Assembly: GCF_026409565.1 (NCBI RefSeq)
Contig: NZ_CP112881.1
Location: 822,501-886,500 of the forward strand
Reading direction: 5' to 3'
Length of the DNA: 64,000 nucleotides
Source: Sneathiella aquimaris
Lineage (GTDB): Bacteria; Pseudomonadota; Alphaproteobacteria; Sneathiellales; Sneathiellaceae
The position numbers were made by a program, and so were the translations under genes. The notes under the pieces are model-generated. The model had not been told where the DNA came from. It did no database searches and worked only from the letters and a program-made list of their open reading frames with translations. This document shows, piece after piece, positions 2,586 to 37,229 of this stretch (its first letter is position 1; every line of letters begins with the position of its first letter).

Positions 2586-2664
<79 letters not shown>

Positions 2665-18036: not shown

Positions 18037-18435
18037 ATGAAAATCATTCGTCTTGCCTGTTTATTCTTTGGACTGGTCACTCTTGCGGCCTGCCAAACAA
18101 CCTCAACGACCCCGGTTGCAGCGGATAAGTTTCCGTCGCTTATTTCTGGTGTTTGGGACGGTCATTTTATCAATAGGCAGGGCACACGCTACCCCGTCAC
18201 CTTTAGGCTTCAAGGGTCGAATGGCAAGGTGTCGGGCAAGGCGCATATTCCGGACAGCAGTTACGACGAGAAGCCGAGCCTCACCGGGACTTATTCCGGC
18301 AATGAGGCAGTGATTGAAACCAGTTCCGGCTTCAAACATGTTCTCGAAATGTCGGTCGCGGACAACGGTGATTATTGGCTGAAGGGGCGTAGCTCCGGGC
18401 CAAATACCGGTCGTCTTGAACTGAAACGTCAGTAG
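18037..18435 (+). CDS. Small lipoprotein, copy 2
   Basis: 132 residues with signal MKIIRLACLFFGLVTLAAC and lipobox LAAC. From QTTST onward the protein is identical to copy 1 at 15509-15916. AAGGAAC lies before the ATG. The unique signal peptide on each copy means the two genes are chimeras around the repeat edge. The next lipoprotein gene follows after 9 nt. Confidence 0.75.
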   Translation: MKIIRLACLFFGLVTLAACQTTSTTPVAADKFPSLISGVWDGHFINRQGTRYPVTFRLQGSNGKVSGKAHIPDSSYDEKPSLTGTYSGNEAVIETSSGFKHVLEMSVADNGDYWLKGRSSGPNTGRLELKRQ

Positions 18436-21525: not shown

Positions 21526-21720
21526 ATGAAGACCGACATAATGACGATCAAGGAAGTAGCGGAGTATCTGAAGCTGACGGAGAAAACGGCTTATCGTCTG
21601 GCGGCGGAAGGGAAGATACCTGGCTTCAAGGTTGGTGGATCATGGCGATTTCGGCGAAGCGAAATTGAAAACTGGATTGATGCTGAGACAAACAGACAGA
21701 AGGGAGAACCGGAGGGGTGA
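21526..21720 (+). CDS. Excisionase-family HTH protein at the head of the defence operon
   Basis: 64 residues: IMTIKEVAEYLKLTEKTAYRLAAEGKIPGFKVGGSWRFRR is the HTH_17/excisionase-like DNA-binding fold. Its stop overlaps the GTG of the helicase gene (GTGA). First place in the operon and tight coupling suggest a regulator of the defence operon, not the excisionase of the element; a better excisionase candidate is next to the integrase (34723-34938). Confidence 0.8.
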   Translation: MKTDIMTIKEVAEYLKLTEKTAYRLAAEGKIPGFKVGGSWRFRRSEIENWIDAETNRQKGEPEG

Positions 21721-24611
21721 TTACAGACTACCATGCCAAACTGTTTGCTCATGAGTTGAGCAAGCGGCACTCCGTTGCGGATGCCGAGAAACTGGCCGGT
21801 ACCCTTTTTGACGCCCAGGTTGATCTGAACCCGCATCAGGTCGAAGCGGCTCTTTTTGCTTTCAAATCGCCCTTGTCCAGGGGGGCTATTCTGGCCGATG
21901 AAGTCGGGCTTGGTAAAACAATCGAAGCCGGTTTGCTTCTTTCCCAAAAATGGACGGAGGGAAAGCGCCGGATCATCATCATTGGCCCCGCCAACCTTCG
22001 GAAACAATGGTCGCAGGAGATTGAAGAGAAGTTCTTTTTGCCGACCTTAATCCTTGAAGCCAAGAACTATAACCGATTGATTAAGGATGGCGTTAAGTGT
22101 CCGTTTGAACAGGATAAGATCGTCATTTGCTCATTCCAGTTTGCCGCGCGCCATGCGGAAGAACTCATGGTGCAGCGATGGGACTTGGCTGTGATCGACG
22201 AGGCACATCGCCTTCGAAATGTCTATCGCCCTGACAACAAGATTGGCAAAGCCCTCAAAGGGGCGTTGTCGAATGCGCCCAAGGTGTTACTGACGGCTAC
22301 GCCATTGCAGAACTCCCTCATGGAGCTCTATGGGCTGGTGAGTATCATTGACGACTATGCCTTTGGAGACGCCAAGAGTTTCCGGGCGCAGTATGCGCGT
22401 TTGACCGGGGACGACCAATTCGATCACCTCAAGAGCAGGCTTGCCCCCGTTTGTCATCGAACCCTCCGTCGTCAGGTGATGGAATATATCCGTTACACCA
22501 ACCGCATTCCCATAACGCAAGAGTTCGTCCCCACCGAGGATGAGCAAGCTCTATACGATATGGTGTCGGATTATCTTCGCCGTCCGTCGCTTCAGGCATT
22601 GCCGAGCGGTCAGCGCACCTTAATGACGTTGATCATGCGCAAGCTGTTGGCGTCTTCGACGTTTGCTATCGCCGGGGCGCTGGATTCCTTGGCGCGAAAG
22701 CTGGAGCGGCAACTGAAGGATGATGCGACCCTTCGCAAGAACCTTGAGGAAGACCAAGAGGAACAGGATGAAATCGTCTATGACTTCGACGGCTTCTCGG
22801 AAGAAGCGGAAGAATGGGTGGACGATGAAGAAGAGCCTGAGCTTCTAACCGAAGCCGATATCGAAGCCATTGAAAGGGAGATCGAAGACCTGCGTGGCTT
22901 CCGGGATTTGGCAGTTGCCATAACCGAAAACGCGAAAGGGCAAGCCCTGTTGGCAGCCCTGAAGGCCGGTATGGACAAGGCGCGGGAACTGGGAAGCGCC
23001 GAGAAGGCGATTATCTTTACGGAGTCCCGCCGAACACAGGAATACCTTGTCCGGCTTCTGACCGAGAACGGCCATGAGGGTAAGCTCGTCCTGTTCAACG
23101 GATCAAACTCGGATACGCAATCCAAGGCCATTTATGAGCAGTGGAAAGTTCGTCATGTCGGCAGCGATCAGATCACGGGTTCCCGGACGGCGGATATGCG
23201 CGCCGCGCTTGTCGAGCATTTCAAAGACCAAGCCTCAATCATGATTGCGACGGAAGCCGCCGCCGAGGGGATCAACCTGCAATTCTGTTCGATGGTGGTG
23301 AATTACGACCTGCCCTGGAACCCGCAAAGAATTGAGCAGCGGATCGGGCGGTGCCACCGTTACGGCCAGAAATATGACGTGGTGGTGATCAACTTCCTGA
23401 ACAAGAACAATGCCGCCGACCAGCGCATTCACCAGCTCCTGTCCGAGAAGTTCAAACTCTTCTCCGGCGTGTTTGGTGCAAGTGATGAGGTGTTGGGTGC
23501 CATTGAGTCCGGTGTGGAGTTCGAAAAGCGGATTGTATCCATTTACCAGACTTGCAGAACAACCGAAGAAATTGAGGAAGCCTTTGAAGCCCTTCAGGCT
23601 GAGATGAGCGCCAAGATCGACGAGACGATGGAGGATACCCGCAAGAAGCTCTTGGAAAACTTCGACGCGGACGTTCATGACCGCCTTCGTATGAATATGA
23701 CGCAGAGCAAGGAATACCTTGGCCGCTATGAACATATGCTCTGGGCGCTGACCAAGCATGAACTCGGACGCCAGGCAGCGTTCGATGATGATCATATGAC
23801 CTTTGTTTTGAAAGAAGCGCCCAAGGGTTTGCAGGACGCCACGCGCGCGCCTGTCGGTGGCTATCACCTGTCCAAGGTTGGATTGGAAGGCCATCGCTAC
23901 CGGATCGGCCATCCGCTTGCCCAGTATTTGTTGGTCCAGGCGGGAGAGAGAAAGCTGAACGGTGCCGAACTTGTCTTTGACTATTCCACATGGCCTCAAA
24001 AGGCCGCCAGTGTCGAGCCGCTTGTCGGTAAGTCGGGAACCTTGTCTGTCCAGAAACTGTCGGTCACAGGGGCAGATGCACAGGATCATATCATCCTTGC
24101 GGGCATGACCGATGATGGCGCACCCATAGACCAGAATGCCGCCATGCGTCTGTTCGACCTTCCATCAAAGAAGGGAGCGACAAGCGGGCTTGAGATCCCC
24201 GAAGCCATTCAGCCCAAAGAAGTCCAAAAGACCATTAGCGCCCGCCGTGAGGCCATCATGCAGGAACTTGCCGAGCAGCAAGCCCAATGGTTCGACGAGG
24301 AAATGGACAAGCTGGACAATTGGGCGGAAGACAAACGCGCCGGGCTGAAAGCTGAGTTGAAGGACTTGGATGATCAGATCAAGGAGTTTAAGCGACAGGT
24401 ACGCCAGACGGGAAACCTGCCGGACAAGCTCGCCTTGCGGAAGAAGGCTCGGAAGCTTGAGCAAAAACGGGATGAGGCGTGGCGTGACTATGACGCCGCA
24501 GCCAAGCAGGTCGAGGTGCAGAAAGATACGCTTCTCGATCAGGTAGAAGAACGATTGCAGCAACAGGTCTCTGACCATGAGCTGTTCACAATCAGATTTA
24601 CGGTTCAGTAG
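21717..24611 (+). CDS. SNF2/RapA-like DEAD-box helicase of the defence operon
   Basis: 964 residues from GTG 21717. Helicase motifs are intact: GLGKTIEAGLLL (Walker A, about residue 64), AVIDEAHRLRN (DEAH), LTATPLQNSLMEL (motif III), and in the second lobe ATEAAAEGINLQFCSMVVNYD, then NPQRIEQRIGRCHRYGQ (motif VI). This is the SNF2 superfamily, close in layout to RapA. An acidic insertion lies between the lobes (DEEEPELLTEADIEAIERE) and a long coiled coil at the C-terminus. It likely translocates on DNA and works with the downstream Mod, DUF262 and Res proteins. Confidence 0.88.
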   Translation: MITDYHAKLFAHELSKRHSVADAEKLAGTLFDAQVDLNPHQVEAALFAFKSPLSRGAILADEVGLGKTIEAGLLLSQKWTEGKRRIIIIGPANLRKQWSQEIEEKFFLPTLILEAKNYNRLIKDGVKCPFEQDKIVICSFQFAARHAEELMVQRWDLAVIDEAHRLRNVYRPDNKIGKALKGALSNAPKVLLTATPLQNSLMELYGLVSIIDDYAFGDAKSFRAQYARLTGDDQFDHLKSRLAPVCHRTLRRQVMEYIRYTNRIPITQEFVPTEDEQALYDMVSDYLRRPSLQALPSGQRTLMTLIMRKLLASSTFAIAGALDSLARKLERQLKDDATLRKNLEEDQEEQDEIVYDFDGFSEEAEEWVDDEEEPELLTEADIEAIEREIEDLRGFRDLAVAITENAKGQALLAALKAGMDKARELGSAEKAIIFTESRRTQEYLVRLLTENGHEGKLVLFNGSNSDTQSKAIYEQWKVRHVGSDQITGSRTADMRAALVEHFKDQASIMIATEAAAEGINLQFCSMVVNYDLPWNPQRIEQRIGRCHRYGQKYDVVVINFLNKNNAADQRIHQLLSEKFKLFSGVFGASDEVLGAIESGVEFEKRIVSIYQTCRTTEEIEEAFEALQAEMSAKIDETMEDTRKKLLENFDADVHDRLRMNMTQSKEYLGRYEHMLWALTKHELGRQAAFDDDHMTFVLKEAPKGLQDATRAPVGGYHLSKVGLEGHRYRIGHPLAQYLLVQAGERKLNGAELVFDYSTWPQKAASVEPLVGKSGTLSVQKLSVTGADAQDHIILAGMTDDGAPIDQNAAMRLFDLPSKKGATSGLEIPEAIQPKEVQKTISARREAIMQELAEQQAQWFDEEMDKLDNWAEDKRAGLKAELKDLDDQIKEFKRQVRQTGNLPDKLALRKKARKLEQKRDEAWRDYDAAAKQVEVQKDTLLDQVEERLQQQVSDHELFTIRFTVQ

Positions 24612-24625
24612 GAGGGGCGTTGGCG

Positions 24626-26494
24626 ATGGCCGGACCTGAAAAAATGGCGCTGACGTCAATGGACGTAGCAGAGGAAAAACGGGAAGAGCTGAAGCAGCTA
24701 TTTCCGGAGGTGTTTTCCGAAGGGAAGATCGACTTCGATCAGCTCAAGCGCGTGTTGGGTGATTGGGTGGAGCCGGGCAAGGAACGGTTCGGGCTTAATT
24801 GGCCGGGCAAAGCCGAGTGCATGAAGATCATTCAAGAGCCGAGTGTTGCCACACTGAAACCTGTGCGCGATGAGTCAGTCGATTTCGATGAAACGGAAAA
24901 CCTCTTCATCGAAGGGGACAATCTGGAAGTTTTGAAGCTCTTGCAGAAGGCCTACTTCGGTAAGGTCAAAACCATTTACATCGATCCTCCATACAACACC
25001 GGACAGGAGTTTATTTATCCGGACAAGTACGCTGAAAACTTAGATACCTACCTTGCCTATACTGGTCAGGTCGATAGCGAAGGAAGGAAGTTTTCAACAA
25101 ATGCCGATGCAGTTGGGCGTTATCACTCTAACTGGTTAAGCATGATGTATCCGCGTCTATATCTGGCGAGGAACTTACTTTCAGATGATGGGATCGTTTT
25201 CATATCGATAGATGACAACGAGCTCGCCAATCTACAGAGTATCTGTAACGACATTTTTGGCGAGGAAAACCTGATCGCGGTATTTGTTTGGAAGAGCCGT
25301 CAAAACAAGGACAACAGGCCGGAAAAAGGTGCTTCAATTGATCATGAATATGTCGTTTGTTATGGCCGTCGCGTTCGTGGAGACCAGAGAAAAGTAGAAC
25401 AATACTCTAATCCTGATAACGACCCTAGAGGGGCTTGGACAAGTGCTAATATGGTTGGGCTTGCCACTAAAGATCGGCGACCAAATTTGCACTTTGATCT
25501 AATCGACCCAGACACCGAGATCAATTACGGATGCCCTGAAATGGGCTGGCGCTACGATCCGAAAACGATGGCACGCTTGATCGAAGAAGACAGGATCATT
25601 TGGCCGTCTTCGCCAGATGGGAGGCCACGTAGGAAGGCATTCTTTGAAGACCTTGGAAGTCAATTTACAGGCATATCCTCAATCGTAGGCAAGGATTTAT
25701 ACACTCGCACAGGAACTGCTGAAATTAGTGACCTTTTTGGATTTCGGGCTATGGATTTTCCGAAGCCGGTTGGGTTGATAAGTGAGGTTGTCGAACAAAG
25801 CGGAGGTGACGACGATATTGTTTTGGACTTCTTCGCAGGTTCTTGTACGACCGCACATGCGGTAATGGGGCTGAATCAGAAGGATGGTGGTAATCGAAAG
25901 TACATTATGGTTCAGTTGCCCGAAGCTTGTGATGAGCAATCTGAGCCATTTCAACGTGGATTGAAGACAATTGCCGATATTGGGAGGGAACGTGTCAGAT
26001 TGGCAGCTGCCAAGCTTAAAGATGCCGAGAACGATCAGCTTACTTTTAATGGTTACCCCAGTAAGGATTTTGGTTTCAAGGCGTTTAAATTAGATCGCTC
26101 GAATTTTAGAGTATGGGATGGTGATTTTGGTGAGGACGAAATCGTTTCTGAACAGCTCGAAATGCACGTCGATCATGTTGCTAAAGAAAGTACGCCTGAA
26201 GACATCCTCTATGAACTTCTCTTGAAAGCTGGCTTCCCGCTGACAACTAAAGTTGAGCAGATCGAACTTGCGGGTAAGCAGGTGTTCTCTGTCGAAGATG
26301 GAGCCTTGCTGATTTGCCTCGAAAAAGAGGTCACGTCAGAGCTGATTGACGCGCTGGCCGATGCCGAGCCTTTGCAGGTGATCTGTCTGGACGAAGGTTT
26401 CCAAGGCAACGACCAACTTAAAGCCAATGCCGTTCAAACCTTCAAGGCGCGTGCTGAATCTCAAGAATCAGAAATCGTCTTCAAGACGGTCTAG
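24626..26494 (+). CDS. Type III-like DNA adenine methyltransferase (Mod)
   Basis: About 622 residues from ATG 24626 (GGAGGGG 9 nt upstream; TTG 24620 is weaker). The beta-class order is seen: IYIDPPYNTG (catalytic DPPY, about residue 115) precedes the SAM motif DIVLDFFAGSCTTAHAV (about 400). The 280-residue middle is the target recognition region. From about 25050 to 25960 the DNA looks clearly AT-richer than both sides, as if the recognition part was exchanged. Its Res partner is two genes downstream. Product: N6-methyladenine that marks self DNA. Confidence 0.9.
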   Translation: MAGPEKMALTSMDVAEEKREELKQLFPEVFSEGKIDFDQLKRVLGDWVEPGKERFGLNWPGKAECMKIIQEPSVATLKPVRDESVDFDETENLFIEGDNLEVLKLLQKAYFGKVKTIYIDPPYNTGQEFIYPDKYAENLDTYLAYTGQVDSEGRKFSTNADAVGRYHSNWLSMMYPRLYLARNLLSDDGIVFISIDDNELANLQSICNDIFGEENLIAVFVWKSRQNKDNRPEKGASIDHEYVVCYGRRVRGDQRKVEQYSNPDNDPRGAWTSANMVGLATKDRRPNLHFDLIDPDTEINYGCPEMGWRYDPKTMARLIEEDRIIWPSSPDGRPRRKAFFEDLGSQFTGISSIVGKDLYTRTGTAEISDLFGFRAMDFPKPVGLISEVVEQSGGDDDIVLDFFAGSCTTAHAVMGLNQKDGGNRKYIMVQLPEACDEQSEPFQRGLKTIADIGRERVRLAAAKLKDAENDQLTFNGYPSKDFGFKAFKLDRSNFRVWDGDFGEDEIVSEQLEMHVDHVAKESTPEDILYELLLKAGFPLTTKVEQIELAGKQVFSVEDGALLICLEKEVTSELIDALADAEPLQVICLDEGFQGNDQLKANAVQTFKARAESQESEIVFKTV

Positions 26495-26504
26495 GGGGGC
26501 GATT

Positions 26505-28232
26505 ATGGGGCAACAAGATTTACGGATTCATGAGCTGGTAACGAAAATTGAGCGCGGCGATATTCGCTTGCCGGAGATGCAGCGTCAATACGTTTGGCAG
26601 CAAACGCGTGTTCGCGATTTATTGGACTCTCTATATCGAGGATATCCATCAGGAACGATTTTGACGTGGGAAACCGATGAGGGCGTGGCGACACGAGATT
26701 TTGCGGTGGGTCAGGACGCTTCGGAGCAGCGTAGTTTTCAGCTTTTGCTGGATGGTCAACAACGACTGACTTCCTTGTCAGCTATTCTCCGGGGTGAGCC
26801 GATTCATGTGAGGGGACGAAAACGACCCATCGATATTTTGTTCAATTTGGAACACCCGGAAAATCTCGAAGAGATAACGGAAGTATTCGAAGATGAGGAG
26901 GCAGAAGACGATACAGACGCCGATCCGGATGAAAGCACAGCGGACGCTTCTGAAGACGAAATCCTGAAGCGTTTCGATCGAATGGCCTTTGTGGTGCATT
27001 CCAACAAGTTGGCGAAGCTACCTCATTGGGTTTCTGTTACTAAAGTCTTTAAGGAAAGCAGCGACACCCCCTTCCTGAAGGAAGCGGGGGTTACATCAAT
27101 GGAAGACCCCCGATACGACAAATATACGGCGCGCTTAAAAAGACTGAGAGACATCAAGGATTACAGTTATCGAGTCCACATCCTTGACCGGGATAAATCC
27201 TATGAGGAAGTGACAGAGATATTCGTGCGCGTGAATTCTCTCGGCGCAAAGCTGAGGAGCTCGGACCTGGCGCTGGCGCAAATTACTGCGAAGTGGCGAG
27301 ATTCTTTAAGTATTTTTCAGGCGTTTGAAGCGGAATGCGTTGACCTTGAGTTTGACCTCGGACTCTCTATTCACCTGAAGAACCTCGTTGCATTTGCGAC
27401 TGGTCAATCCCGGTTTAAGACGGTTGGAAGTTTATCCAAGGAAAGGCTGGAGGCCGCCTGGGAAGATGCCAAGAAGGGAATGCTTTTCGCCCTAAATTTC
27501 CTTCGCAGCAATGTGGGGATCGACAGTCCGGCGCTGTTATCCTCGCCGTTTATTATAATTACGCTTGCTGCGTATGGACATTCAAAGGGCTACCACCTGT
27601 CCCCGGAAGAGAGTGCCCGCCTTCGGTATTGGGTTCTAGTGGCAAATGCGAAAGCCCGGTATTCGAGGGGGTCATCGGAAACTTTCCTTGATCAGGATTT
27701 GGCAGCGCTTCGTCGCGATCAAAATATTGACGGGCTACTACAGCTTCTCAAAACGCAGGTTGGCCGTTTAGAGGTGTTGCCGAGTGATCTGGAAAACAGA
27801 AATAGTCGCAGTGCATATTTCAAGACCATGTTCATGGCATTCCGAAAAGATGATGCCCGTGATTGGCGAGATCAGCTTGTTATTTCTCTGAAACATTCTG
27901 GGGCGCAACACGCACTTCAGTTCCATCATGTTTTTCCCCAGGCCGTTTTGAAGAAGGCTAATTTGCCGAGCCAAAAGATTAACGACATTTGCAACCTGAC
28001 CTTCATTAGCGGCAGCACAAACAGGCGGATTAGCGACAAGGAGCCCGCAGTCTATTTGCCCGGAGTGATTGAGAAAATTGGTGCGGAAGAATTGGGCAAG
28101 CAATGTATTCCGACCAATGACGGACTTTGGAAGGTTGATGATTATGAAAGCTTCCTGACTACACGCAGGGAGCTTGTTGCGGAACGACTTAATCAGTTTC
28201 TTGAGCACGATAAATGGGGAGTGGCGGCATGA
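26505..28232 (+). CDS. DUF262 plus HNH (DUF1524) nuclease, GmrSD-like
   Basis: 575 residues from ATG 26505. The N-terminal DUF262 shows RGDIRLPEMQRQYVW and LLDGQQRLTSLSAIL, the ParB/Srx-like NTP-binding signature. The C-terminal DUF1524 HNH part shows QFHHVFPQAVL and ICNLTFISGSTNRRIS. Proteins of this two-domain type (GmrSD, BrxU) cut modified phage DNA in an NTP-dependent way. An acidic spacer (EDEEAEDDTDADPDE) separates parts of the N-domain. It sits between mod and res, which is not the usual type III layout, and its stop overlaps the res start (ATGA). Confidence 0.88.
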   Translation: MGQQDLRIHELVTKIERGDIRLPEMQRQYVWQQTRVRDLLDSLYRGYPSGTILTWETDEGVATRDFAVGQDASEQRSFQLLLDGQQRLTSLSAILRGEPIHVRGRKRPIDILFNLEHPENLEEITEVFEDEEAEDDTDADPDESTADASEDEILKRFDRMAFVVHSNKLAKLPHWVSVTKVFKESSDTPFLKEAGVTSMEDPRYDKYTARLKRLRDIKDYSYRVHILDRDKSYEEVTEIFVRVNSLGAKLRSSDLALAQITAKWRDSLSIFQAFEAECVDLEFDLGLSIHLKNLVAFATGQSRFKTVGSLSKERLEAAWEDAKKGMLFALNFLRSNVGIDSPALLSSPFIIITLAAYGHSKGYHLSPEESARLRYWVLVANAKARYSRGSSETFLDQDLAALRRDQNIDGLLQLLKTQVGRLEVLPSDLENRNSRSAYFKTMFMAFRKDDARDWRDQLVISLKHSGAQHALQFHHVFPQAVLKKANLPSQKINDICNLTFISGSTNRRISDKEPAVYLPGVIEKIGAEELGKQCIPTNDGLWKVDDYESFLTTRRELVAERLNQFLEHDKWGVAA

Positions 28233-31177
28233 AGCTAAAATTCGACCCCTCCTTAGAGTTCCAGCAGGATGCGATTAACGCCGTCGTTGATGCGTTTGAC
28301 GGTCAGGCGATTTCGCAATCCGGTGCGACGGCTTTTCAGGCTTTGCAAATCGGTGGTTTGTTTCAGAACGAGCTTGGCATGGGCAACCAATTGACGCTGC
28401 CAGCAGATCAAATTTTGGCGAATGTGCAAAAAGCGCAGGAAGCCAACGATATTGAGAAAGTGCCGTCTCTTCAGGGGCATGAGTTTTCCGTCGAGATGGA
28501 GACAGGGACAGGCAAGACCTACGTCTATCTTCGCACCATTTTCGAGCTGAACAAGAAATACGGCTTCCGCAAGTTCATCATTGTGGTTCCGAGCGTGGCG
28601 ATCCGTGAAGGTGTCCTGAAGAGCATTGACGTGATGAAGGATCACTTCAGAACGCTCTATGACAACGTGCCGTTCGATCATTTTGTCTATGATTCAAAAC
28701 GGCTGAGCAAGGTACGCCAGTTCGCCAGCAGCAACCAAATCCAGATCATGATCATCAACATTCAGGCTTTTGTGAAAGATGTGCCGGACAAGCCTGAATC
28801 CGAGATGACGGAAGACGAGCTCAAAAAGCTCAACGTCATTAACCGGGAGAATGATCGTATGTCGGGGCGCAAGCCGATTGAGTTCATTCAGGCCACAAAT
28901 CCGTTTGTAATTATCGATGAACCGCAAAGTGTCGATAACACCGAGAAGGCGAAGAACGCCATCAAGCGATTGCATCCGGCAGCGACGTTACGCTACAGCG
29001 CCACCCACCGGAACCCCTATAACCTGCTCTACAAGCTTGATCCGATCAAAGCCTATGACTTGCGGCTCGTGAAGCGGATCGAGGTGGCTTCCATTCGTTC
29101 GGACGACAATTTCAACGACGCCTATGTGAAGCTCCTGAAGACCGACAATAAGAACGGGATCAAAGCGCAGGTTGAAATCCACAAAGAAACGCCGTCGGGG
29201 CCGAAGGCTTCCAAGCTTTGGGTCAAACAGAGCGACGATCTGTTTGTGAAGTCCGGCGAACGTATTTCCTATGAGGATGGCTATATCGTTCAGAATATTG
29301 ATTGCACACCGGGCGCTGAAGGTTTGGAGTTCAACTCTGGACGTTGGCTCGATCTGGGGCAGGAAATCGGTGGCCTTGGTGACGACATCATGAAGGCGCA
29401 GGTGTTTGAGACTGTCGAACAGCACCTGAAGAAAGAACGCGCCCTCAAGGGCAAGGGAATCAAGGTTCTCTCCCTCTTCTTCATCGACAAGGTGGCGAAT
29501 TACCGTGTCTACAACGATGACAACACGACCAGTCTTGGCAAGATTGGCCAATGGTTTGAAGAGGCGTTCCGGGAGCTGACGGAGAAGCCGCGATATAAAG
29601 GCCTGATCCCGTTTGATGTATCGCAAGTTCATGACGGCTATTTCAGTCAGGACAAACAAGGCCACGACAAGGATACGCGCGGCAACACCAAGGACGATGA
29701 CGATACCTATAGTCTGATAATGCGGGATAAGGAGCGGCTCTTGGATGAAGCCGTCCCCTTGCGTTTCATCTTCTCCCACTCCGCTTTGCGGGAGGGCTGG
29801 GATAACCCGAACGTCTTCCAGATTTGCACCCTGAACGAAACGCAGTCGGTTGAGAAGAAGCGGCAGGAAATCGGACGTGGCCTGCGATTGCCCGTGAACA
29901 AGCATGGTGAGCGGGTGCATGACGAAACCGTCAACCGCCTGACTGTGATTGCCAATGAGTCATACGAGGAGTTTGCGCGCACCCTGCAAACCGAGTTCGA
30001 GGAAGATTTCGGTATCCAGTTTGGCAAGGTCGAAAAGATCGCCTTTTCCAAGCTGATCGTCACCAAAACCGATGGAACCGAAGAAGAGCTTGGGCAAGAG
30101 GCGTCGGCCAAAATCTGGCAGGAGATGATCGATAACGGCTATCTGAATGATGCCGGTGAAATCCTTGACACGTTTGACCCGAAGAACCCGCATTTTGATT
30201 TGAAAGTTTCCGATGAGTTTGCCGGTTTGAAGGCCGAGATCATCGACGAAATCAACAAGAAGGTTTTCAAAAACCGTATCGTGAATGCGCGGGAACGCCG
30301 TGAGCTCAAGTTCCGCAAAGAAGTGCATTTGAGCGAAGACTTTATTGCCCTGTGGGATCGGATCAAGCACCGCACCCGCTATCGCGTGACCTTCGAGACC
30401 GATGACTTGATTGAAAAAGCCGTTAGCCGGATCAAGAAGCTGGAGGCCATCAAGCCTGTTCGCATTGCCATGACCCGCGTTGATCTTGGCATTACCGAGG
30501 CCGGAGTCAATACGGATACGAAGCTTGAGGAGAAGTCCATTGATGCGGAACCCGTCAAGGTGTTGCCGGACATCCTTGCCTTTTTACAGAAGGAAACGGA
30601 ACTCACTCGCCACACGCTGGTTCAAATACTGAAACAGTCCGGACGGCTTGAAGAGTTCAAGATCAATCCGCAAGCCTTTATGGCCGCTGTTGCCAAGGAA
30701 ATCTCCCGTGCGCTTCACGACTTGATGCTGGAAGGCATCCAGTACGACAAGATCGCTGGTCAGCAGTGGGAGATGAGCCGTATTGAGCAGGAGGCGGAGG
30801 AAGGGATCGTCCGCTACCTGAGTAATTTGTACGAGGTGCAGAACCGCGAGAAGGCGCTCTTTGACGCCATTGAGTATGACTCGGAAGTCGAACGACAGTT
30901 CGCGCAAGACCTCGATACGAATGATTTTGTCCGTTTGTTCGTCAAGCTTCCGAGCTGGTTCAAGATCGACACACCGATCGGACCGTATAATCCGGATTGG
31001 GCGTTCGTGACCGACAGAGACGATAAGCTCTACTTTGTTCGCGAAACCAAAAGCTCATTGGACTCCGAAGATCGACGCAACAAGGAAAACCAAAAGATCG
31101 CTTGCGGCAAAAAGCACTTTGAGACGATTGGAGTTGACTACGACGTCGTGACCTCTTTGTCAGAGGTGGCATTATGA
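28229..31177 (+). CDS. Type III restriction subunit (Res)
   Basis: 982 residues from ATG 28229. The helicase core has ETGTGKTYVYLRTIFEL (Walker A), FVIIDEPQSVD (DEPQ box), LRYSATHRN, and EKKRQEIGRGLRLPVN (motif VI). The C-terminal PD-(D/E)xK nuclease is visible as TPIGPYNPDWAFV followed by YFVRETKSS. All catalytic motifs are intact, so it should be active. It pairs with Mod at 24626-26494 to form a type III enzyme. It overlaps the previous and next genes by 4 nt (ATGA) at both ends. Confidence 0.93.
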   Translation: MKLKFDPSLEFQQDAINAVVDAFDGQAISQSGATAFQALQIGGLFQNELGMGNQLTLPADQILANVQKAQEANDIEKVPSLQGHEFSVEMETGTGKTYVYLRTIFELNKKYGFRKFIIVVPSVAIREGVLKSIDVMKDHFRTLYDNVPFDHFVYDSKRLSKVRQFASSNQIQIMIINIQAFVKDVPDKPESEMTEDELKKLNVINRENDRMSGRKPIEFIQATNPFVIIDEPQSVDNTEKAKNAIKRLHPAATLRYSATHRNPYNLLYKLDPIKAYDLRLVKRIEVASIRSDDNFNDAYVKLLKTDNKNGIKAQVEIHKETPSGPKASKLWVKQSDDLFVKSGERISYEDGYIVQNIDCTPGAEGLEFNSGRWLDLGQEIGGLGDDIMKAQVFETVEQHLKKERALKGKGIKVLSLFFIDKVANYRVYNDDNTTSLGKIGQWFEEAFRELTEKPRYKGLIPFDVSQVHDGYFSQDKQGHDKDTRGNTKDDDDTYSLIMRDKERLLDEAVPLRFIFSHSALREGWDNPNVFQICTLNETQSVEKKRQEIGRGLRLPVNKHGERVHDETVNRLTVIANESYEEFARTLQTEFEEDFGIQFGKVEKIAFSKLIVTKTDGTEEELGQEASAKIWQEMIDNGYLNDAGEILDTFDPKNPHFDLKVSDEFAGLKAEIIDEINKKVFKNRIVNARERRELKFRKEVHLSEDFIALWDRIKHRTRYRVTFETDDLIEKAVSRIKKLEAIKPVRIAMTRVDLGITEAGVNTDTKLEEKSIDAEPVKVLPDILAFLQKETELTRHTLVQILKQSGRLEEFKINPQAFMAAVAKEISRALHDLMLEGIQYDKIAGQQWEMSRIEQEAEEGIVRYLSNLYEVQNREKALFDAIEYDSEVERQFAQDLDTNDFVRLFVKLPSWFKIDTPIGPYNPDWAFVTDRDDKLYFVRETKSSLDSEDRRNKENQKIACGKKHFETIGVDYDVVTSLSEVAL

Positions 31178-32568
31178 CAGGCATATGCAAATACAAACTT
31201 CTTTCGCCGGATTCAGCCAGTGCTAGCGAAGATTTGATAGCGGGCAAAAACTCCGAAGACGGCCTTCGACGGATTCAAGCTTTGCTGGCCGAATGGCTTA
31301 GAATGGAAAACGTGGTTGTACTGACTGCGGCTGGCTGTTCCGTTGGTGCTGGAGGCCGGTTAATGGCTGGCCCCGCTGATAATAATTTGGAGTGTCTGGT
31401 TCTTGATGCAGTTGAACAGTGTGATCTGCCCGATGATGCTAAGGCCATTATAGAATGGAAAAAGGCAAACGGTTTTGGCGCAGGAAACTTCGAGGAGTGG
31501 CTGAGTTTTCTGTTCAACGCAAACGGATTGCTTGAGGGTGACCAGACACCAATCCAATCGGTATCTTGGAAGCGACAAGGAGCTGGAGGCGGGGAAATTA
31601 CCCTGTCATCCGATGATGAAGCGAAACTGCGTAGCTATATCGAGAAGGCCATTTACAGTGAGTGCGCGCTTGAGCTTAATAGGAAAGAATTAACAGGCGA
31701 GGAGGTGGAGTCGTCGGGACACATACCTTTCTTAGCGAAGTTGATAGCCAGAGATACTAATCTTGGGCGCACCCATTTATTTACGTTGAATTACGACACT
31801 CTGTTTGAGCAAGCCCTTGAGGAGCTCGGAATTCAGTATTTTGATGGGTTCTCTGGCAAGACAACTGCTCGGTTTGATCCAGCGGTTTATGGGCTGGACA
31901 TTTATTATCCCGGCGACGTAGCCGAAGGCCGCGTCCGACGTTTCGACAAATTTCTGCAATTTTATAAGCTACATGGTTCCCTCCACTGGTTCTTGGAGGA
32001 TGGCGCATACAGGGCTCAGCACAGGAACCTGTCTTTTGCCAAAGACTACCGTGAAAGTGATGCAGCCGCGAAGGCTGAAAAGCTCAAATCTGACGAGTAC
32101 AAAAATATCGGTTCGTTTGGCATTTTACCAACGTCGCAGAAATTCACTCAAACATTGGACATGCCATATGCCCATCTTTTCCGGCTGTTTCATGCACGGT
32201 TAAACCAGCCACAGACCTTCTTGTTGGTGATGGGATATGGGTTTGGCGATGATCATGTAACACGCATTATTGAAACGGCATTGATGAACCCTTCGTTGGT
32301 CATGCTTGTTGTCGAACCAAATCCGGACAGTGACATAGTTAAAAGGATCGCTCGGTATCAGAACCTTGGGCAGAGAGCTTTTGTACTTACTGAAAGGTTG
32401 GAAGAAGGCGCAGATTGCTCATATGGAGTGGCGACCTTTTCTGATTTTGCTCAGAACGTGATGCCTGACGTGAAGTGGTTAGAGGACTTTAAACGTCTTA
32501 GGAAATTTGAAGAGCAGATTCGAAAATCACAGGAGAAAAACCCCGACGAGCCTGCGGAGGAAGCTTAA
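31174..32568 (+). CDS. SIR2-like defence protein
   Basis: 464 residues. SIR2 features: VVVLTAAGCSVGAGG near residue 50 (NAD-binding loop, GAGxS-like), FTLNYDTLFEQALEELGI near 205 and FYKLHGSLHWF near 268 with the catalytic-type His. A Rossmann-like VMGYGFGDDHV occurs later. Defence SIR2 proteins degrade NAD on infection. The next gene encodes a HerA-like ATPase; SIR2-HerA is an established two-gene defence pair. The start overlaps the res stop (ATGA) and its stop overlaps the herA start (TAATG), so it is fixed into the operon. Confidence 0.9.
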   Translation: MTGICKYKLLSPDSASASEDLIAGKNSEDGLRRIQALLAEWLRMENVVVLTAAGCSVGAGGRLMAGPADNNLECLVLDAVEQCDLPDDAKAIIEWKKANGFGAGNFEEWLSFLFNANGLLEGDQTPIQSVSWKRQGAGGGEITLSSDDEAKLRSYIEKAIYSECALELNRKELTGEEVESSGHIPFLAKLIARDTNLGRTHLFTLNYDTLFEQALEELGIQYFDGFSGKTTARFDPAVYGLDIYYPGDVAEGRVRRFDKFLQFYKLHGSLHWFLEDGAYRAQHRNLSFAKDYRESDAAAKAEKLKSDEYKNIGSFGILPTSQKFTQTLDMPYAHLFRLFHARLNQPQTFLLVMGYGFGDDHVTRIIETALMNPSLVMLVVEPNPDSDIVKRIARYQNLGQRAFVLTERLEEGADCSYGVATFSDFAQNVMPDVKWLEDFKRLRKFEEQIRKSQEKNPDEPAEEA

Positions 32569-34655
32569 TGGAGCAACCTCGCGTTATCGGGTACGTCGTT
32601 TCTGTAAATGGGTTCCGCCTGAAAGTGGAGCTTTCAACAGAAGCAAAGTCTTCGTCTAGGGCGACACCTGATGGTGTTCAGCGCGCTGTTGCTATCAATT
32701 CATTCCTTACGTTCGATCTGGGGGCGGGAACTCATGCAATCGGGATTTTAAGCGATCTTGAGGCGCGTGAATCCTACGACCCAACGCGTGATGAGGAACT
32801 GTCCTTGGAACTAACGAAACCAAGGAGAATTGCATCTGTTCAGTTGTTGGGAACGGTAAGGCAGTCCACCAACCGGAGTTGGCTTTTTGATACGGGCATC
32901 ACAGTGTTGCCTACCCTCGACACCCCGGCTGAAGTAGCGAATCCTGAAGTGCTTTCTGGGATTTTTGCTCTCCCTCCATTGAGGAATAGGCCGCGAGGGT
33001 CGGAGGATGATAATTATGATTATCCGCTCGAAATCGGATATCTCACGGGCGATGAAAATTCTAAAGTGAAGGCGTCTTTTAACGATCTGTTTTCGCGCCC
33101 TTTGGCCGTAGTGGGGAATACCGGCTCAGGAAAGTCATATACCGTTGCAAGCCTTCTAAGAGGGGTTATTGAACATGAAGGTTTACAGTCGGCAGATGCT
33201 GATCCCCATATATTTATCCTCGATATCAACGGTGAGTATGCCAATGCTTTTTTGGAGGGCGAAGCAGCCCGTCACCAACGAGAACCAAACAAAATTTATC
33301 TAAATGGTGAAGAGTTTTGTCTTCCGGCTTGGCTTATGAATGGCGAGGAGATTTGCGATTGGCTTCAGGCTTCAGAAGCCACTCAGGAGCCTGTTCTAAA
33401 AGATTGGTGGGCGATAGCAAAGGCGAGTTCAGCAGCGCCGGGAACTTACGACCCGCTACAAGTGGCAATTGGCAAAATTGATTCTGCAATTGCTTGGTTG
33501 GACGGGAATACCCCTGCCAGCAATTTCGATTTGCTCATTTCCCATGCTCGACAGTATGCGGTGGACTTGGATTGGGACGCGTTTGATCAGCTCCCAAATT
33601 GGTCACCCAACAACCAAGATCAATGGAGAAGGGTGTCGAATGATCGTGAGGTCAGGGATCGTTTGGGTGAATTTCGTGCCGCTTTATTGGAGGCTATTTC
33701 CCAGCGCCAAAATGAGGGGGTCAACTTCGCAAAATCTGCGGATGCTCCCCGTTTCATCTCACTACATGAATTTCGAGACCCAAACCTCATTGATCGATCA
33801 ACAGATCAGGACAGTAACAAGCGGATAGATCAGTACTTATTGACCTTGAAGCTGCGGTTAAGAACGCGTCTCGATGATCGTAGGTGGCAGTCGTTTTTTA
33901 GCTTTGAAGAGCAGGATGTTCGTTCCTACGAAGATTGGATGGGGAGGCTTGGCGTTGGGCAAGCGGCTGGAAGCCGCATTTCTGTCCTCGATTTGTCGAT
34001 GCTGGCTTCTGAAATCCTGCCGTTCGCGTGCGCTATTCTGGGAAGGTTGCTGTTGGAATCTCGGGAGATGCTTAACCCGGATGTCAGGAGCAAATATCCT
34101 TGGCTATTGGTGCTCGAAGAAGCTCATAATTATGTGCGCCCGCCAAGAGCTGTAGAAGATCGAAGCCTTAGCCTGTCTAGGCGAGCATTTGAGAGAGTTG
34201 CGAAAGAAGGACGGAAGTTTGGCTTGTCTCTTGTGGTCGCCAGTCAGCGTCCCAGTGAAATCAGCCCTACAATCATAAGCCAATGTGCAAATTTTTTCTC
34301 CCATCGTTTGCAGAACCCTGATGACATTGATCATTTCCGACGCATTATTCCAAAACAAGCCCAGCGTCTCTTGGATCAAGTGACTGTTCTTGCGGCAGGG
34401 GAGGCGATTGTTTTTGGAAGTGCCGTACATGTGCCATCTCGGGTGCAAATCAGGAAGCCTTCTCAGGAGCCTTGGAGTTCCACAGCAGCCCCATATGTTG
34501 ATTGGGCTACGGGTGACAGTTTTCCGTTGGCGTCTGTGATTGAAAGCTGGGGTTTGGCAGATGTGGAGCAGGAGGATGTTGTTGAGAACGTGAACGCAGT
34601 TCATATGCCTGTAGACGCAGGCGAAGGGCAGGATGATGACGATCTGCCGTTTTGA
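32568..34655 (+). CDS. HerA-like ATPase (DUF87), partner of the SIR2 protein
   Basis: 695 residues. An N-terminal HAS-barrel-like domain is followed by DUF87: AVVGNTGSGKSYTVASLLRG (Walker A, about residue 180), FILDINGEYANAF, LLVLEEAHNYVRPP (Walker B), and ASQRPSEISPTIISQCANFF. HerA proteins form hexameric rings on DNA. In SIR2-HerA systems the ring assembles with SIR2 into a large complex. The DNA of this gene and of the SIR2 gene looks AT-richer than res, suggesting they joined the operon separately. A terminator follows. Confidence 0.91.
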   Translation: MEQPRVIGYVVSVNGFRLKVELSTEAKSSSRATPDGVQRAVAINSFLTFDLGAGTHAIGILSDLEARESYDPTRDEELSLELTKPRRIASVQLLGTVRQSTNRSWLFDTGITVLPTLDTPAEVANPEVLSGIFALPPLRNRPRGSEDDNYDYPLEIGYLTGDENSKVKASFNDLFSRPLAVVGNTGSGKSYTVASLLRGVIEHEGLQSADADPHIFILDINGEYANAFLEGEAARHQREPNKIYLNGEEFCLPAWLMNGEEICDWLQASEATQEPVLKDWWAIAKASSAAPGTYDPLQVAIGKIDSAIAWLDGNTPASNFDLLISHARQYAVDLDWDAFDQLPNWSPNNQDQWRRVSNDREVRDRLGEFRAALLEAISQRQNEGVNFAKSADAPRFISLHEFRDPNLIDRSTDQDSNKRIDQYLLTLKLRLRTRLDDRRWQSFFSFEEQDVRSYEDWMGRLGVGQAAGSRISVLDLSMLASEILPFACAILGRLLLESREMLNPDVRSKYPWLLVLEEAHNYVRPPRAVEDRSLSLSRRAFERVAKEGRKFGLSLVVASQRPSEISPTIISQCANFFSHRLQNPDDIDHFRRIIPKQAQRLLDQVTVLAAGEAIVFGSAVHVPSRVQIRKPSQEPWSSTAAPYVDWATGDSFPLASVIESWGLADVEQEDVVENVNAVHMPVDAGEGQDDDDLPF

Positions 34656-34674: not shown

Positions 34675-34710
34675 AAAAGCCCCCGCCGATATCTCGGCAA
34701 GGGGCTTTCT
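34675..34710 (+). terminator. Terminator of the defence operon
   Basis: AAAGCCCC-CGCCGA / TCGGC-GGGGCTTT stem with TATC loop, a bulge and TCTTGTC after it. It lies 20 nt after the herA stop. Confidence 0.8.
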
Positions 34711-35033: not shown

Positions 35034-36143
35034 TTAGAACAACTTCTTGTTTAGGTCGGTGACAAGCCCTTTTACATGGCTTTCCGACAGGTGCGCGTAG
35101 CGCTTCACCATTTGCAAAGTTTTGTGACCCAGGACTTCGGCGATTTCCATCTGGCTGGCTCCGCTCATGGCCAGATAGGACGCCGTTGAATGGCGCAAAT
35201 CATGGAAACGGAAGTCGGTGATGCCTGCTTCATTTCTGGCATTCTCCCAGGCCTTCCGAATATCGATAGGCGCTTGAGCGTCATTTCGAGGAAATAGCCA
35301 ACGCCGGTTTGAAGGGGTATCCATTTCATCATGCAGCCGTTCCGCAAAATCCGCCTGCTCTGTAAGCAGCTCATGCAAATGATGAACGACGGAAACAGCC
35401 CGGGTTTCACCGTTTTTGGTATCTCTAAGAATGGCCGTGTCACGGCCAAGGTGCAGATCATCGAGCTTCAGGTTGAGGATTTCGCTCTTTCGTGCACCGG
35501 TCGATAGGGCAAAGACGACAATCGGGTAAAGCTGTTTATTCGGGCTGGATTTGCAAGCCGCCAGGAGCGCGTCTCGCTCATCATCCAGAAGGTAGCGATC
35601 CCGCTCATTTCTGATTTTGGCGTATCTGTTGACGCCCTGAAGCGGATCGTCGGCCATCCAGCCCCAATGCCTCGCGTATTTCAGGAGTTGGGCAAGATTG
35701 TCCCGGTAGAGCTTCAGCGTCTTGCGGCTCTTTGGTTTACGCGGTGCATCCGTTTCAACATGGCTTCGGGTATCTCCGGCTTTGGCCAACGCCTTCAGCT
35801 TTTCGTTAATCAGTTCCGGTGTGAGGAAAGCCAAGCCATATTGTCCAAGGCTCTTTTGCCAGAAGGAAAGGTAACTCTGTTGCGCGCGTTGTGTGCTCAC
35901 CGCTTTGTCCGGCAGAATATCTTCCCGGTATCGGTCGATAACATCTGTAAGTTTGAACCCTTTCGCCGACTTGCTGATTTGTCGGAATTCGCCGTTGCGG
36001 ATTGCCGCCTGGGTTTGCTCGGCCCATATTTTAGCATCGGTTCGCCGGGTAAAGCTCTTCTGGACCTCCGGCAGGCCTTGGACGCGAATGCGAACGCGAT
36101 AAAAGGTGCCTGTTTTACGTGTGCGTTTCTCAATCGTGGCCAT
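35034..36143 (-). CDS. int: Tyrosine integrase of the element
   Basis: 369 residues. An N-terminal arm-binding-like region (RVRIRVQGLPEVQKSFTRR) is followed by a SAM-like core-binding domain and the catalytic domain. Catalytic residues: Arg in LSTGARKSEIL, Lys in DTKNGETRAV, HDLRHSTASYLA, LGHKT and the Tyr in VKRYAHLS. All are intact. Its target, by position of the att repeats, is tRNA-fMet. It lies beside attR, whereas the intact tRNA is at the other end, the reverse of the commonest layout. The arm repeat at 36179-36198 lies just upstream. Confidence 0.94.
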   Translation of the reverse strand: MATIEKRTRKTGTFYRVRIRVQGLPEVQKSFTRRTDAKIWAEQTQAAIRNGEFRQISKSAKGFKLTDVIDRYREDILPDKAVSTQRAQQSYLSFWQKSLGQYGLAFLTPELINEKLKALAKAGDTRSHVETDAPRKPKSRKTLKLYRDNLAQLLKYARHWGWMADDPLQGVNRYAKIRNERDRYLLDDERDALLAACKSSPNKQLYPIVVFALSTGARKSEILNLKLDDLHLGRDTAILRDTKNGETRAVSVVHHLHELLTEQADFAERLHDEMDTPSNRRWLFPRNDAQAPIDIRKAWENARNEAGITDFRFHDLRHSTASYLAMSGASQMEIAEVLGHKTLQMVKRYAHLSESHVKGLVTDLNKKLF

Positions 36144-36315: not shown

Positions 36316-36363
36316 GCTCATAACCTGAAGGTCGTAGGTTCAAATCCTACCCCCGCAACCAAA
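36316..36363. repeat. attR: 48-bp direct repeat
   Basis: A perfect copy of 2617-2664: anticodon arm to 3' end of tRNA-fMet, without the tRNA 5' half. It marks the right end of the 33.7-kb element (33,699 bp from repeat to repeat). Confidence 0.95.
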
Positions 36364-36425: not shown

Positions 36426-36551
36426 TTTCCGGAAGCACGACGGAAGCAGAGGATTTTGCTTGTATGCGGAAATTTGACTCGAAACCCGGAAATGGGGGAG
36501 TATGGGTTGAATAGAAGGGATTCATATTCTGGGGCAGTATGTGAAAGTCAA

Positions 36552-37229
36552 ATGAGTCTATTTTCTGGATGGTTTGGAGAAAAAATAGCCACATTTACAA
36601 TGTGGCTGACACTGGATTCCAAAAAATACAAGAGAGTTCACGATGTCATTTTACCGTCAAAAAATGGAACCGCACAGATCGATCATATACTAGTCTCTGT
36701 GTATGGGATCTTCATTATCGAGACGAAAAATGTAAAAGGTTGGATTTTCGGTTCTGAAAAACAGGCAAAATGGACTCAAGTTCTTTATGGCCATAAATAT
36801 ACTTTTCAAAACCCAATTAGACAAACATTCAGGCAAAAAAAGGTGCTTGCTGAATTTTTGGATATTGACGAACATCTGATACATACCATTGTCTATTTCG
36901 TCGGTGATTGTGAGTTTAAAACCCGATTGCCGCCCAATGTTTTGCAATATGGACTGGAATCCTACGTAAAGCGATTTAGACAACATGTGTTCTCATATGC
37001 TGAAACTATACGCATTTACGATAAGCTTGAAAGGACGGCAAAATCAAAATCACTCTCGAAAAGTGACCATTTGAAGTCCCTGCATGAACGGCACAATTCT
37101 ACAAAAGCCTGCCCGAGATGTGGAGGTGTTTTATTGATAAGAACGGCGAGGAAGGGCTCTAATGCCGGGTTGGAGTTTCTCGGATGCTCCAATTATCCGA
37201 AATGTAGGTTTACACGCCGCGTTTCCTGA
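36552..37229 (+). CDS. NERD-domain protein with C-terminal zinc ribbon
   Basis: About 225 residues from ATG 36552; the frame is open further upstream but MSLFSGWFGEK is the usual start of this family. The NERD (nuclease-related) core is clear: HDVILPSKNGTAQIDHILVS, VYGIFIIETKNVKGWIFGS, WTQ, FQNPIRQ. The E..K pair in IETKN is the nuclease-like site. The C-terminus has CPRCGG and LGCSNYPKCRFTRR, a topoisomerase-type zinc ribbon. It is probably a DNA-acting enzyme. It is the first gene beyond attR, in the AT-richer older island. Confidence 0.87.
   Translation: MSLFSGWFGEKIATFTMWLTLDSKKYKRVHDVILPSKNGTAQIDHILVSVYGIFIIETKNVKGWIFGSEKQAKWTQVLYGHKYTFQNPIRQTFRQKKVLAEFLDIDEHLIHTIVYFVGDCEFKTRLPPNVLQYGLESYVKRFRQHVFSYAETIRIYDKLERTAKSKSLSKSDHLKSLHERHNSTKACPRCGGVLLIRTARKGSNAGLEFLGCSNYPKCRFTRRVS

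What the first reader, a model, noticed from the sequence alone, without database searches (positions are those of the whole stretch)
21526..34655. Seven-gene compound defence operon: HTH, SNF2 helicase, Mod, DUF262-HNH, Res, SIR2, HerA
All seven genes run in one direction with 4-nt overlaps or gaps of 14 bp or less, then one terminator. Each part alone is known in defence: type III Mod/Res, GmrSD-like DUF262-HNH nuclease, SNF2 helicase as in DISARM-type systems, and SIR2-HerA. I do not know of a described system that fuses all of them in one coupled operon with the DUF262 nuclease between mod and res. A layered logic is plausible: Res and Mod cut unmodified DNA, DUF262-HNH cuts modified DNA, SIR2-HerA depletes NAD if both fail. 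That logic is inference.
Basis: partly seen in the sequence, partly recalled or inferred. Interest (0 to 1): 0.88.

Follow-up and report, generated by a model that had tools for sequence, protein, structure and literature searches.

The report
Helicase-coupled restriction operon with plug-in effectors
A mobile DNA island in this bacterium carries a seven-gene anti-phage operon in which a common helicase-plus-restriction backbone has been fitted with two further known defence modules; each part is familiar, but the backbone turns out to be a widespread platform whose restriction pair and effectors have been exchanged between lineages.

Summary
Confirmed: seven co-directional, tightly packed, intact genes (HTH, RapA-like SNF2 helicase, type III Mod, BrxU-like DUF262-HNH, EcoP15I-like Res, SIR2, HerA) at 21526-34655, carried by a 33.7-kb mobilizable island flanked by a 48-bp repeat of the tRNA-Met 3' end. 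SNF2-Mod-Res is a widespread chassis for which I found no name: 67 of 104 SNF2 loci surveyed show it in order; 24 of the other 37 end at a nearby contig end. Other defence genes (AIPR, AAA, Schlafen, Fic, Abi_2, RhuM, DUF262, SIR2) sit between or behind the three with near-zero spacing. Mod and Res identities track each other (Spearman 0.84) but hardly SNF2 (0.26, 0.34), so the restriction pair looks exchangeable too. SIR2-HerA is a Nezha-type pair whose nearest relative found (73/77% identical) stands alone. Yet all seven families recur in another order on a Planctomycetes plasmid, with a different SIR2-HerA (27/35%), and SIR2-HerA sits in a third chassis in a spirochaete: recruitment seems recurrent. 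New variant of a known kind (restriction operons with embedded back-up effectors). The layered cut-then-suicide logic remains inference.

The parts
2586..2662 (+). tRNA-Met gene, attachment site of the island
   Evidence: ARAGORN
2617..2664 (+). 48-bp exact repeat, probable left attachment site (3' part of tRNA-Met)
36316..36363 (+). 48-bp exact repeat, probable right attachment site, just beyond the integrase
35034..36143 (-). tyrosine integrase of the island
   Evidence: Pfam Phage_integrase 105 bits
21526..21720 (+). small HTH protein (HTH_17; NCBIfam MAD1 84.8 bits, cut-off 80), probable regulator
21717..24611 (+). RapA-like SWI2/SNF2 helicase, 964 aa; constant part of the chassis
24620..26494 (+). 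type III Mod (DPPYNTG and DFFAG motifs)
26505..28232 (+). DUF262-HNH (GmrSD/BrxU-like, PADLOC HEC-05); longest ORF from 26427; DGQQR and HHVFP motifs
   Evidence: start counted from the translation
28229..31177 (+). type III Res (EcoP15I-like helicase plus PD-ExK nuclease)
31174..32568 (+). SIR2 NADase-like; TLNYD and KLHGS stretches aligned to the SIR2 of 8j4u
32568..34655 (+). HerA ATPase, partner of SIR2
34680..34703 (.). strong hairpin behind the last gene, probable terminator
   Evidence: + strand sequence

Best explanation
The locus is a defence operon carried by an integrative mobilizable element. Its core is a type III restriction-modification pair (Mod, Res) coupled to a RapA-like SNF2 translocase; this core is a widespread chassis into which other effectors are inserted in operon. 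Here the inserts are a BrxU-like DUF262-HNH nuclease between mod and res, and a complete Nezha-type SIR2-HerA pair behind res. Shown by sequence: the parts, their motifs, the operon packing, the chassis with its varying inserts and varying restriction pair, the island ends. Inferred from characterised relatives: Mod-Res methylates self and cuts unmodified DNA; the SNF2 motor strips or remodels DNA-bound protein so that Res can act; DUF262-HNH cuts phage DNA whose bases are modified and escape Res; SIR2-HerA destroys NAD+ if infection goes on. Co-transcription would give one horizontally moving package with several independent lines of defence; no physical complex between cargo and chassis is claimed.
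For: Families, motifs and solved relatives. SNF2-Mod-Res in order in 67 of 104 SNF2 loci (window 1, plasmids 9, genome contigs 46, phylum draw 11). Slot counts among the 67: 35 with gene(s) between SNF2 and Mod, 18 between Mod and Res, 21 behind Res, 16 bare (mechanical gene calls, so approximate). Cargo junctions of 30 bp or less: 97 of 121; only three minus-strand genes of 150 aa or more inside. Many inserts match known defence families. Pairwise identities: Mod-Res Spearman 0.84, SNF2-Mod 0.26, SNF2-Res 0.34 over 58 loci; window versus L138 is SNF2 69%, Mod 19%, Res 16%. The closest chassis L021 and L136 (SNF2 77/75%, Res 78/79%) lack SIR2-HerA and have other genes between mod and res. The nearest SIR2-HerA pairs found stand alone. 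Recurrence in K2D and a spirochaete. Island: 48-bp tRNA repeat, relaxase, NikA, coupling protein, RepA, ParA, integrase; none of 23 other genomes of the genus has a close SNF2 match (best E 3.6e-14).
Against: No expression or phage data. 13 of the 37 incomplete loci have 5 kb or more in view and still lack the rest of the order. HTH was detected upstream in only 14 of 90 loci, so it is not shown to be a fixed part. SIR2-HerA occurs in only 3 of 104 chassis loci and in 0 of 27 viral-contig loci read, so its link to this chassis is rare. Among 19 loci fetched by their Res, 8 have another SNF2-like helicase upstream and 5 with enough DNA in view have none recognised, so this SNF2 is not needed for type III restriction in general. 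The HNH profile scored below Pfam's cut-off (20.7 versus 23). The identity correlations use non-independent pairs and no rooted trees.
Confidence: 0.8

Rival explanations
1. One obligate seven-component machine: SNF2, Mod/Res, DUF262 and SIR2-HerA form a sensing and effector complex, with SIR2-HerA fired by the restriction complex.
For: Overlapping or nearly touching genes throughout; all seven families recur in the K2D plasmid.
Against: The nearest SIR2-HerA pairs found stand alone; the closest chassis lack them; K2D's SIR2 is only 27% identical and lies in another slot; in Vibrio cholerae deleting the whole island except SIR2-herA kept resistance to two ICP1 phages (passages of PMC11559045).
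Confidence: 0.08
2. Pure chance adjacency of unrelated defence systems in a defence island, with no functional tie beyond shared mobility.
For: The SIR2-HerA pair and the DUF262 subfamily occur without the chassis elsewhere; the island looks mobile.
Against: Inserts lie inside the chassis in the same direction with gaps of 30 bp or less in 97 of 121 junctions; three divergent SIR2-HerA pairs lie in chassis loci, in two different slots; SNF2-Mod-Res order holds in 67 loci.
Confidence: 0.12
3. The operon serves mainly the mobile element (competition with other elements, or stabilisation of its own inheritance) rather than the cell.
For: Carried by a mobilizable island with relaxase, ArdC-type anti-restriction protein, RepA and ParA; relatives of the helicase and Mod lie on plasmids.
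Against: Relatives also lie on megabase contigs. It does not exclude phage defence.
Confidence: 0.25

Closest known systems
Type III restriction-modification (EcoP15I)
   Same: Mod and Res full-length homologs with methylase, helicase and PD-ExK motifs
   Different: preceded by a RapA-like SNF2 helicase and carrying inserts between and behind mod and res
Nezha (SIR2-HerA)
   Same: adjacent SIR2 and HerA; active-site stretches conserved against 8j4u
   Different: here appended to an SNF2-Mod-DUF262-Res operon with a 4-nt overlap
BrxU / GmrSD type IV enzymes; PADLOC HEC-05
   Same: DUF262 with DGQQR and an HNH-like C-terminus; the only solved relative found is 7p9k, a 'DUF262 domain-containing protein' that I recall to be BrxU
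   Different: sits between mod and res instead of in a BREX locus
BREX-related (BR) systems: SWI2/SNF2 helicase, DUF499 ATPase, DUF1156 methylase
   Same: SWI2/SNF2 helicase plus methylase plus embedded back-up effectors (passages of PMC12839542)
   Different: no DUF499 ATPase and no DUF1156 in the seven proteins; restriction by a type III Res
Hma (helicase, methylase, ATPase; passages of PMC8565338)
   Same: helicase and methylase in one operon; HmaA matches the SNF2 at 163.7 bits
   Different: better match to other helicase models; no HmaC-type ATPase gene recognised here
DISARM class 1 (DrmD)
   Same: SNF2 helicase matches DrmD over residues 29-675
   Different: 711.6 bits, below NCBIfam's cut-off of 950; no DrmB or DrmC among the seven genes
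Planctomycetes bacterium K2D plasmid operon (CP036351.1, L022)
   Same: all seven families in one operon, DUF262 63% identical
   Different: order HTH-SNF2-SIR2-HerA-Mod-DUF262-Res and a different SIR2-HerA (27% and 35%)

Membership tests
Type III restriction-modification | neighbouring Mod methylase and Res with SF2 helicase and PD-ExK endonuclease | tested here: met
   a DUF262 gene is inserted between them
Type III restriction-modification | methylation of one strand and cleavage between head-to-head sites | not testable with these tools
   needs methylome and in vitro cleavage
Nezha SIR2-HerA | adjacent SIR2 and HerA of defence families with NADase and ATPase motifs | tested here: met
Nezha SIR2-HerA | NAD+ depletion on infection, complex of 12 SIR2 and 6 HerA | not testable with these tools
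   known for relatives only (passages of PMC11559045)
GmrSD/BrxU type IV | DUF262 N-terminal NTPase domain with DGQQR | tested here: met
   Pfam GmrSD_N 109 bits, motif, 7p9k alignment
GmrSD/BrxU type IV | C-terminal HNH (DUF1524) domain | tested here: inconclusive
   GmrSD_C 20.7 bits, cut-off 23; HHVFP motif present
GmrSD/BrxU type IV | cleavage of DNA with modified cytosine | not testable with these tools
   no biochemical data
DISARM | DrmD equivalog together with DrmA, DrmB, DrmC | tested here: not met
   DrmD below cut-off; no DrmB or DrmC row and DrmA only as a helicase cross-hit among the rows shown (25 of 48 families shown for the helicase, 25 of 27 for Mod, 25 of 26 for SIR2, all rows for the other four)
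MADS | MAD1 HTH | tested here: met
   NCBIfam NF047737 84.8 bits, cut-off 80
MADS | the other mad genes | tested here: not met
   only a weak mad8 cross-hit on HerA (63 bits) among the rows shown
BREX / BREX-related BR | BrxC or DUF499 ATPase, PglZ, DUF1156-type methylase | tested here: not met
   no such family in the complete Pfam and NCBIfam lists of the seven proteins
Hma | HmaA, HmaB and HmaC together | tested here: not met
   HmaA cross-hit on the helicase only (163.7 bits); no HmaB or HmaC row shown (lists capped as said above)

The most novel reading that the evidence does not exclude
The RapA-like SNF2 helicase is the conserved hub of an unnamed defence family: the type III restriction pair and the effectors are both interchangeable plug-ins around it, so the helicase (not Mod-Res) sets the identity of the system and may act as the sensor or DNA-clearing motor that every plugged-in effector depends on; the seven-part assembly seen here has been built at least twice independently because NAD-depleting and modified-DNA-cutting back-ups complement it.
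Probability: 0.35. Interest if true: 0.72.

Novelty: new variant of a known kind. Interest (0 to 1): 0.52.

Why it matters
It turns one odd operon into a testable rule: a helicase-coupled type III restriction platform, found on plasmids, chromosomes and this island, that takes up abortive-infection and type IV effectors in defined slots and seems to exchange even its restriction pair. The slots between SNF2, mod and res are places to look for unknown defence genes (at least L136's insert, and L253's in a related operon type, have no Pfam match), and the decoupling of SNF2 from Mod-Res asks what the helicase does for such different restriction enzymes.

Tried and rejected
Considered and rejected: DISARM, full MADS, Hma, BR and BREX membership (see membership rows). 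Considered: HTH as a fixed part; only 14 of 90 loci gave a hit, although 6 of 8 annotated plasmid loci have an HTH gene directly upstream. Tried a control of type III loci without SNF2, fetched by their Res (28 of 200 genomes match; 19 of the 29 listed places fetched). It did not work as a control: 8 of 19 carry another SNF2-like helicase upstream (1052-1097 aa, 100-129 bits to my SNF2 profile), followed in 7 of the 8 by a 224-269 aa gene that is DUF4391 in the two tested (L259, L260); of the other 11, six are cut close to Mod or Res and five have DNA in view without a recognised SNF2, too few to compare insert rates. Distant blastn in E. coli showed only the methylase under the listed rows (20 of 234 records). 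VIA-align ranks many SNF2 cores level (Z 20-24); the RapA entries (Z 21-22) are the listed ones that align over nearly the whole model (699-732 residues, rmsd 4.7-9.7), and Foldseek puts RapA first, with modest TM-scores of 0.39-0.51; BREX or DISARM helicases not being listed excludes nothing. Gene calls are mechanical: L027's annotated AIPR gene was missed, a split helicase or Res made false inserts in L100, L032 and L101, and some slot-B genes are second methylases. Four fetched loci had no recognisable SNF2 gene; duplicates L137, L140, L149 were dropped; L025 was kept apart. The Pfam scan of slots B and C used 48 of 56 proteins (left out: 5 slot-B genes, three of them Mod-like and two about 100 aa, and 3 slot-C genes under 145 aa), that of slot A 63 of 64 (a helicase fragment left out). 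Of 79 viral loci I read the first 27. The DUF262 queries began one codon before the likely start.

Full report
What is there. The window holds seven + strand genes at 21526-34655. Family scans give HTH_17/MAD1; SNF2 helicase; type III Mod; DUF262 with HNH-like end (PADLOC HEC-05); type III Res; SIR2; HerA. Motifs are present: SNF2 DEVGLGKT and DEAH, Mod DPPYNTG and DFFAG, DUF262 DGQQR and HHVFP, Res GTGKT, DEPQ, PD and ETK, SIR2 TLNYD and KLHGS, HerA GNTGSGKS and EEAH. Nearest solved relatives by sequence are RapA (8so8), EcoP15I Res (4zcf), the DUF262 protein 7p9k (BrxU, by recall), the SIR2 of 8j4u and HerA of 9c1m, 8xau and 8j4u. An AlphaFold model of the helicase (mean pLDDT 79, pTM 0.62) has RapA as its four best Foldseek matches, over about 1060 alignment columns with TM-scores of 0.39-0.51. 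Junctions run from a 4-nt overlap to a 14-nt gap.

Where it sits. A 48-bp exact repeat of the 3' end of tRNA-Met lies at 2617-2664 and 36316-36363. Between the copies are a VirD4/TraG-type coupling protein, an ArdC-type anti-restriction protein, NikA, a MobA-type relaxase, a short integrase-type ORF (199 aa), a ParA-type protein, a RepA-type initiator, the operon, and a tyrosine integrase next to the right repeat. I read this as an integrative mobilizable element in tRNA-Met; excision was not shown. None of the 23 other genomes of the genus searched has a close match to the helicase (best E 3.6e-14, against 0 in the window's genome). Several of them also carry more than one copy of the tRNA end, so the site may be an insertion hot spot; I did not follow that up.

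The chassis. I collected SNF2 relatives from plasmids, from named genome contigs (best 80) and from an even draw of the phylum, where 23 of 398 genomes, the window's own included, match at E 1e-60 or better. After dropping duplicates, 104 loci have the SNF2 gene; 67 show SNF2, Mod and Res in that order (window 1, plasmids 9, genome contigs 46, phylum draw 11), 13 show SNF2-Mod and 24 SNF2 alone. Of these 37, 13 have 5 kb or more in view and still lack the rest (one of them, L082, has Mod-Res in front); the other 24 end sooner. Host names range over Pseudomonadota, Bacteroidota, Planctomycetota, Spirochaetota, Bacillota, Actinomycetota and others.

Slots. Of the 67, 35 have gene(s) between SNF2 and Mod, 18 between Mod and Res, 21 close behind Res, 16 none. 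The inserts are packed like operon genes: 97 of 121 junctions are 30 bp or less, and only three minus-strand genes of 150 aa or more fall inside, two of them in L027, where the annotation has an AIPR gene on the plus strand. Pfam matches among 63 slot-A proteins (a protein can match several): AAA_15 12, AIPR 10, Schlafen AlbA_2 5, DUF4276 4, SIR2_2 3, Abi_2 2, Fic 2, GmrSD_N 2, HerA DUF87 2. Among 48 of the 56 slot-B and slot-C proteins: RhuM 4, GmrSD_N 3 (the window's included), SbcD_C 3, AAA_21 4, and singles such as DUF4276, YhcG and NERD. One slot-A insert is a 1189-aa SIR2 protein (L096).

The restriction pair seems to be exchanged as well. Over 58 loci with near-full genes, pairwise identities correlate strongly between Mod and Res (Spearman 0.84) and weakly between SNF2 and Mod (0.26) or Res (0.34). 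Examples: window versus L138, SNF2 69%, Mod 19%, Res 16%; L054 versus L106, 83%, 23%, 17%. So Mod and Res travel together, and one helicase lineage is joined to quite different type III pairs. The pairs are not independent, and this was not tested on rooted trees.

The two cargo modules here. The closest chassis, L021 (Rhizobium plasmid) and L136, share SNF2 at 77/75% and Res at 78/79%, but have another DUF262-HNH (26% identity) or a 231-aa gene without Pfam match between mod and res, and no SIR2-HerA. The window's DUF262 subfamily also occurs without these neighbours (L166, 49% identity). For SIR2-HerA, 5 of 385 genomes of the class have this HerA family at E 1e-60 (window included); in the other four the pair has no recognised SNF2, Mod or Res in the 17-19.5 kb fetched, and the same holds for Shinella (31 kb). 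Identities to the window for SIR2/HerA: L163 73/77, L162 57/54, Shinella 56/49, L164 47/49, and L165, a distant one, 26/27. In the phylum draw the four other genomes with HerA matches of 660 bits or more (G366, G102, G234, G066) are not among those with the SNF2.

Recurrence. Planctomycetes bacterium K2D carries HTH-SNF2-SIR2-HerA-Mod-DUF262-Res on a 70-kb plasmid: the 342-aa 'hypothetical protein' is SIR2 (398 bits), its DUF262 is 63% identical to the window's, but its SIR2 and HerA only 27% and 35%. A Spirochaetes contig has SNF2, other genes, SIR2-HerA, other genes, Mod, with Res further along the same contig (overlap checked). That makes 3 of 104 loci, and 0 of 27 viral-contig loci read. 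These pairs differ strongly in sequence (26-35% identity) and lie in two different slots, so I infer separate recruitments. I have no exact base rate: 82 of 398 genomes hold some HerA match at E 1e-40, most of them over part of the model.

How it probably works. From the relatives: Mod-Res methylates and restricts; BrxU-like enzymes cut modified DNA (passages of PMC10952713); Nezha destroys NAD+, and both SIR2's active site and HerA are needed (passages of PMC11559045). The SNF2 role is the least certain; RapA recycles RNA polymerase (entry title), so clearing bound protein from invading DNA is a reasonable guess. Order of action is inference.

What is known already. That restriction operons harbour extra abortive-infection genes is old: a figure legend of PMC2292703 calls AIPR common in restriction operons (passages), PMC3710099 lists HEPN genes embedded in them (passages), and PMC12839542 describes back-up effectors in BREX and BR loci (abstract, outline and passages). 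PADLOC's name HEC-05 I recall as 'Hma-embedded candidate'; no call shows this. None of ten full-text searches over open-access papers brought up, in the listings and passages I saw, a description of the SNF2-Mod-Res chassis with its slots; subscription papers and most preprints were not searched.

Verdict.

Noticed in passing
window 2617-2664 and 36316-36363: 48-bp exact repeat of the tRNA-Met 3' end bounding a 33.7-kb probable integrative mobilizable element with relaxase, NikA, coupling protein, ParA, RepA and integrase.
   Followed up: yes
window 6834-7748: ArdC-type anti-restriction protein (ArdcN plus MPTase-PolyVal) on the same island as the restriction operon: the element carries both restriction and anti-restriction.
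   Followed up: no
window 15563-15862 and 18082-18381: 300-bp direct repeat, 97% identical, on the island.
   Followed up: no
window 36456-37229: NERD nuclease-related domain with topoisomerase zinc ribbon, just outside the right repeat.
   Followed up: no
L251, L252, L253, L256, L259-L262: Second helicase-coupled type III group in the same phylum: another SNF2-like helicase (1052-1097 aa), in 7 of 8 a 224-269 aa gene (DUF4391 in the two tested), Mod, Res, and in some extra genes (Fic, Schlafen, GmrSD, OLD-like).
   Followed up: partly
L138 and L153 (both from genome G477): One genome holds two SNF2 chassis with different type III pairs.
   Followed up: no
tRNA-Met copies in other genomes of the genus (e.g. 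G003 contig 8, G017 contig 9, G022 contig 1): Repeated tRNA-Met 3' ends about 3.5-10.5 kb apart suggest that the same site takes up islands repeatedly in this genus.
   Followed up: no
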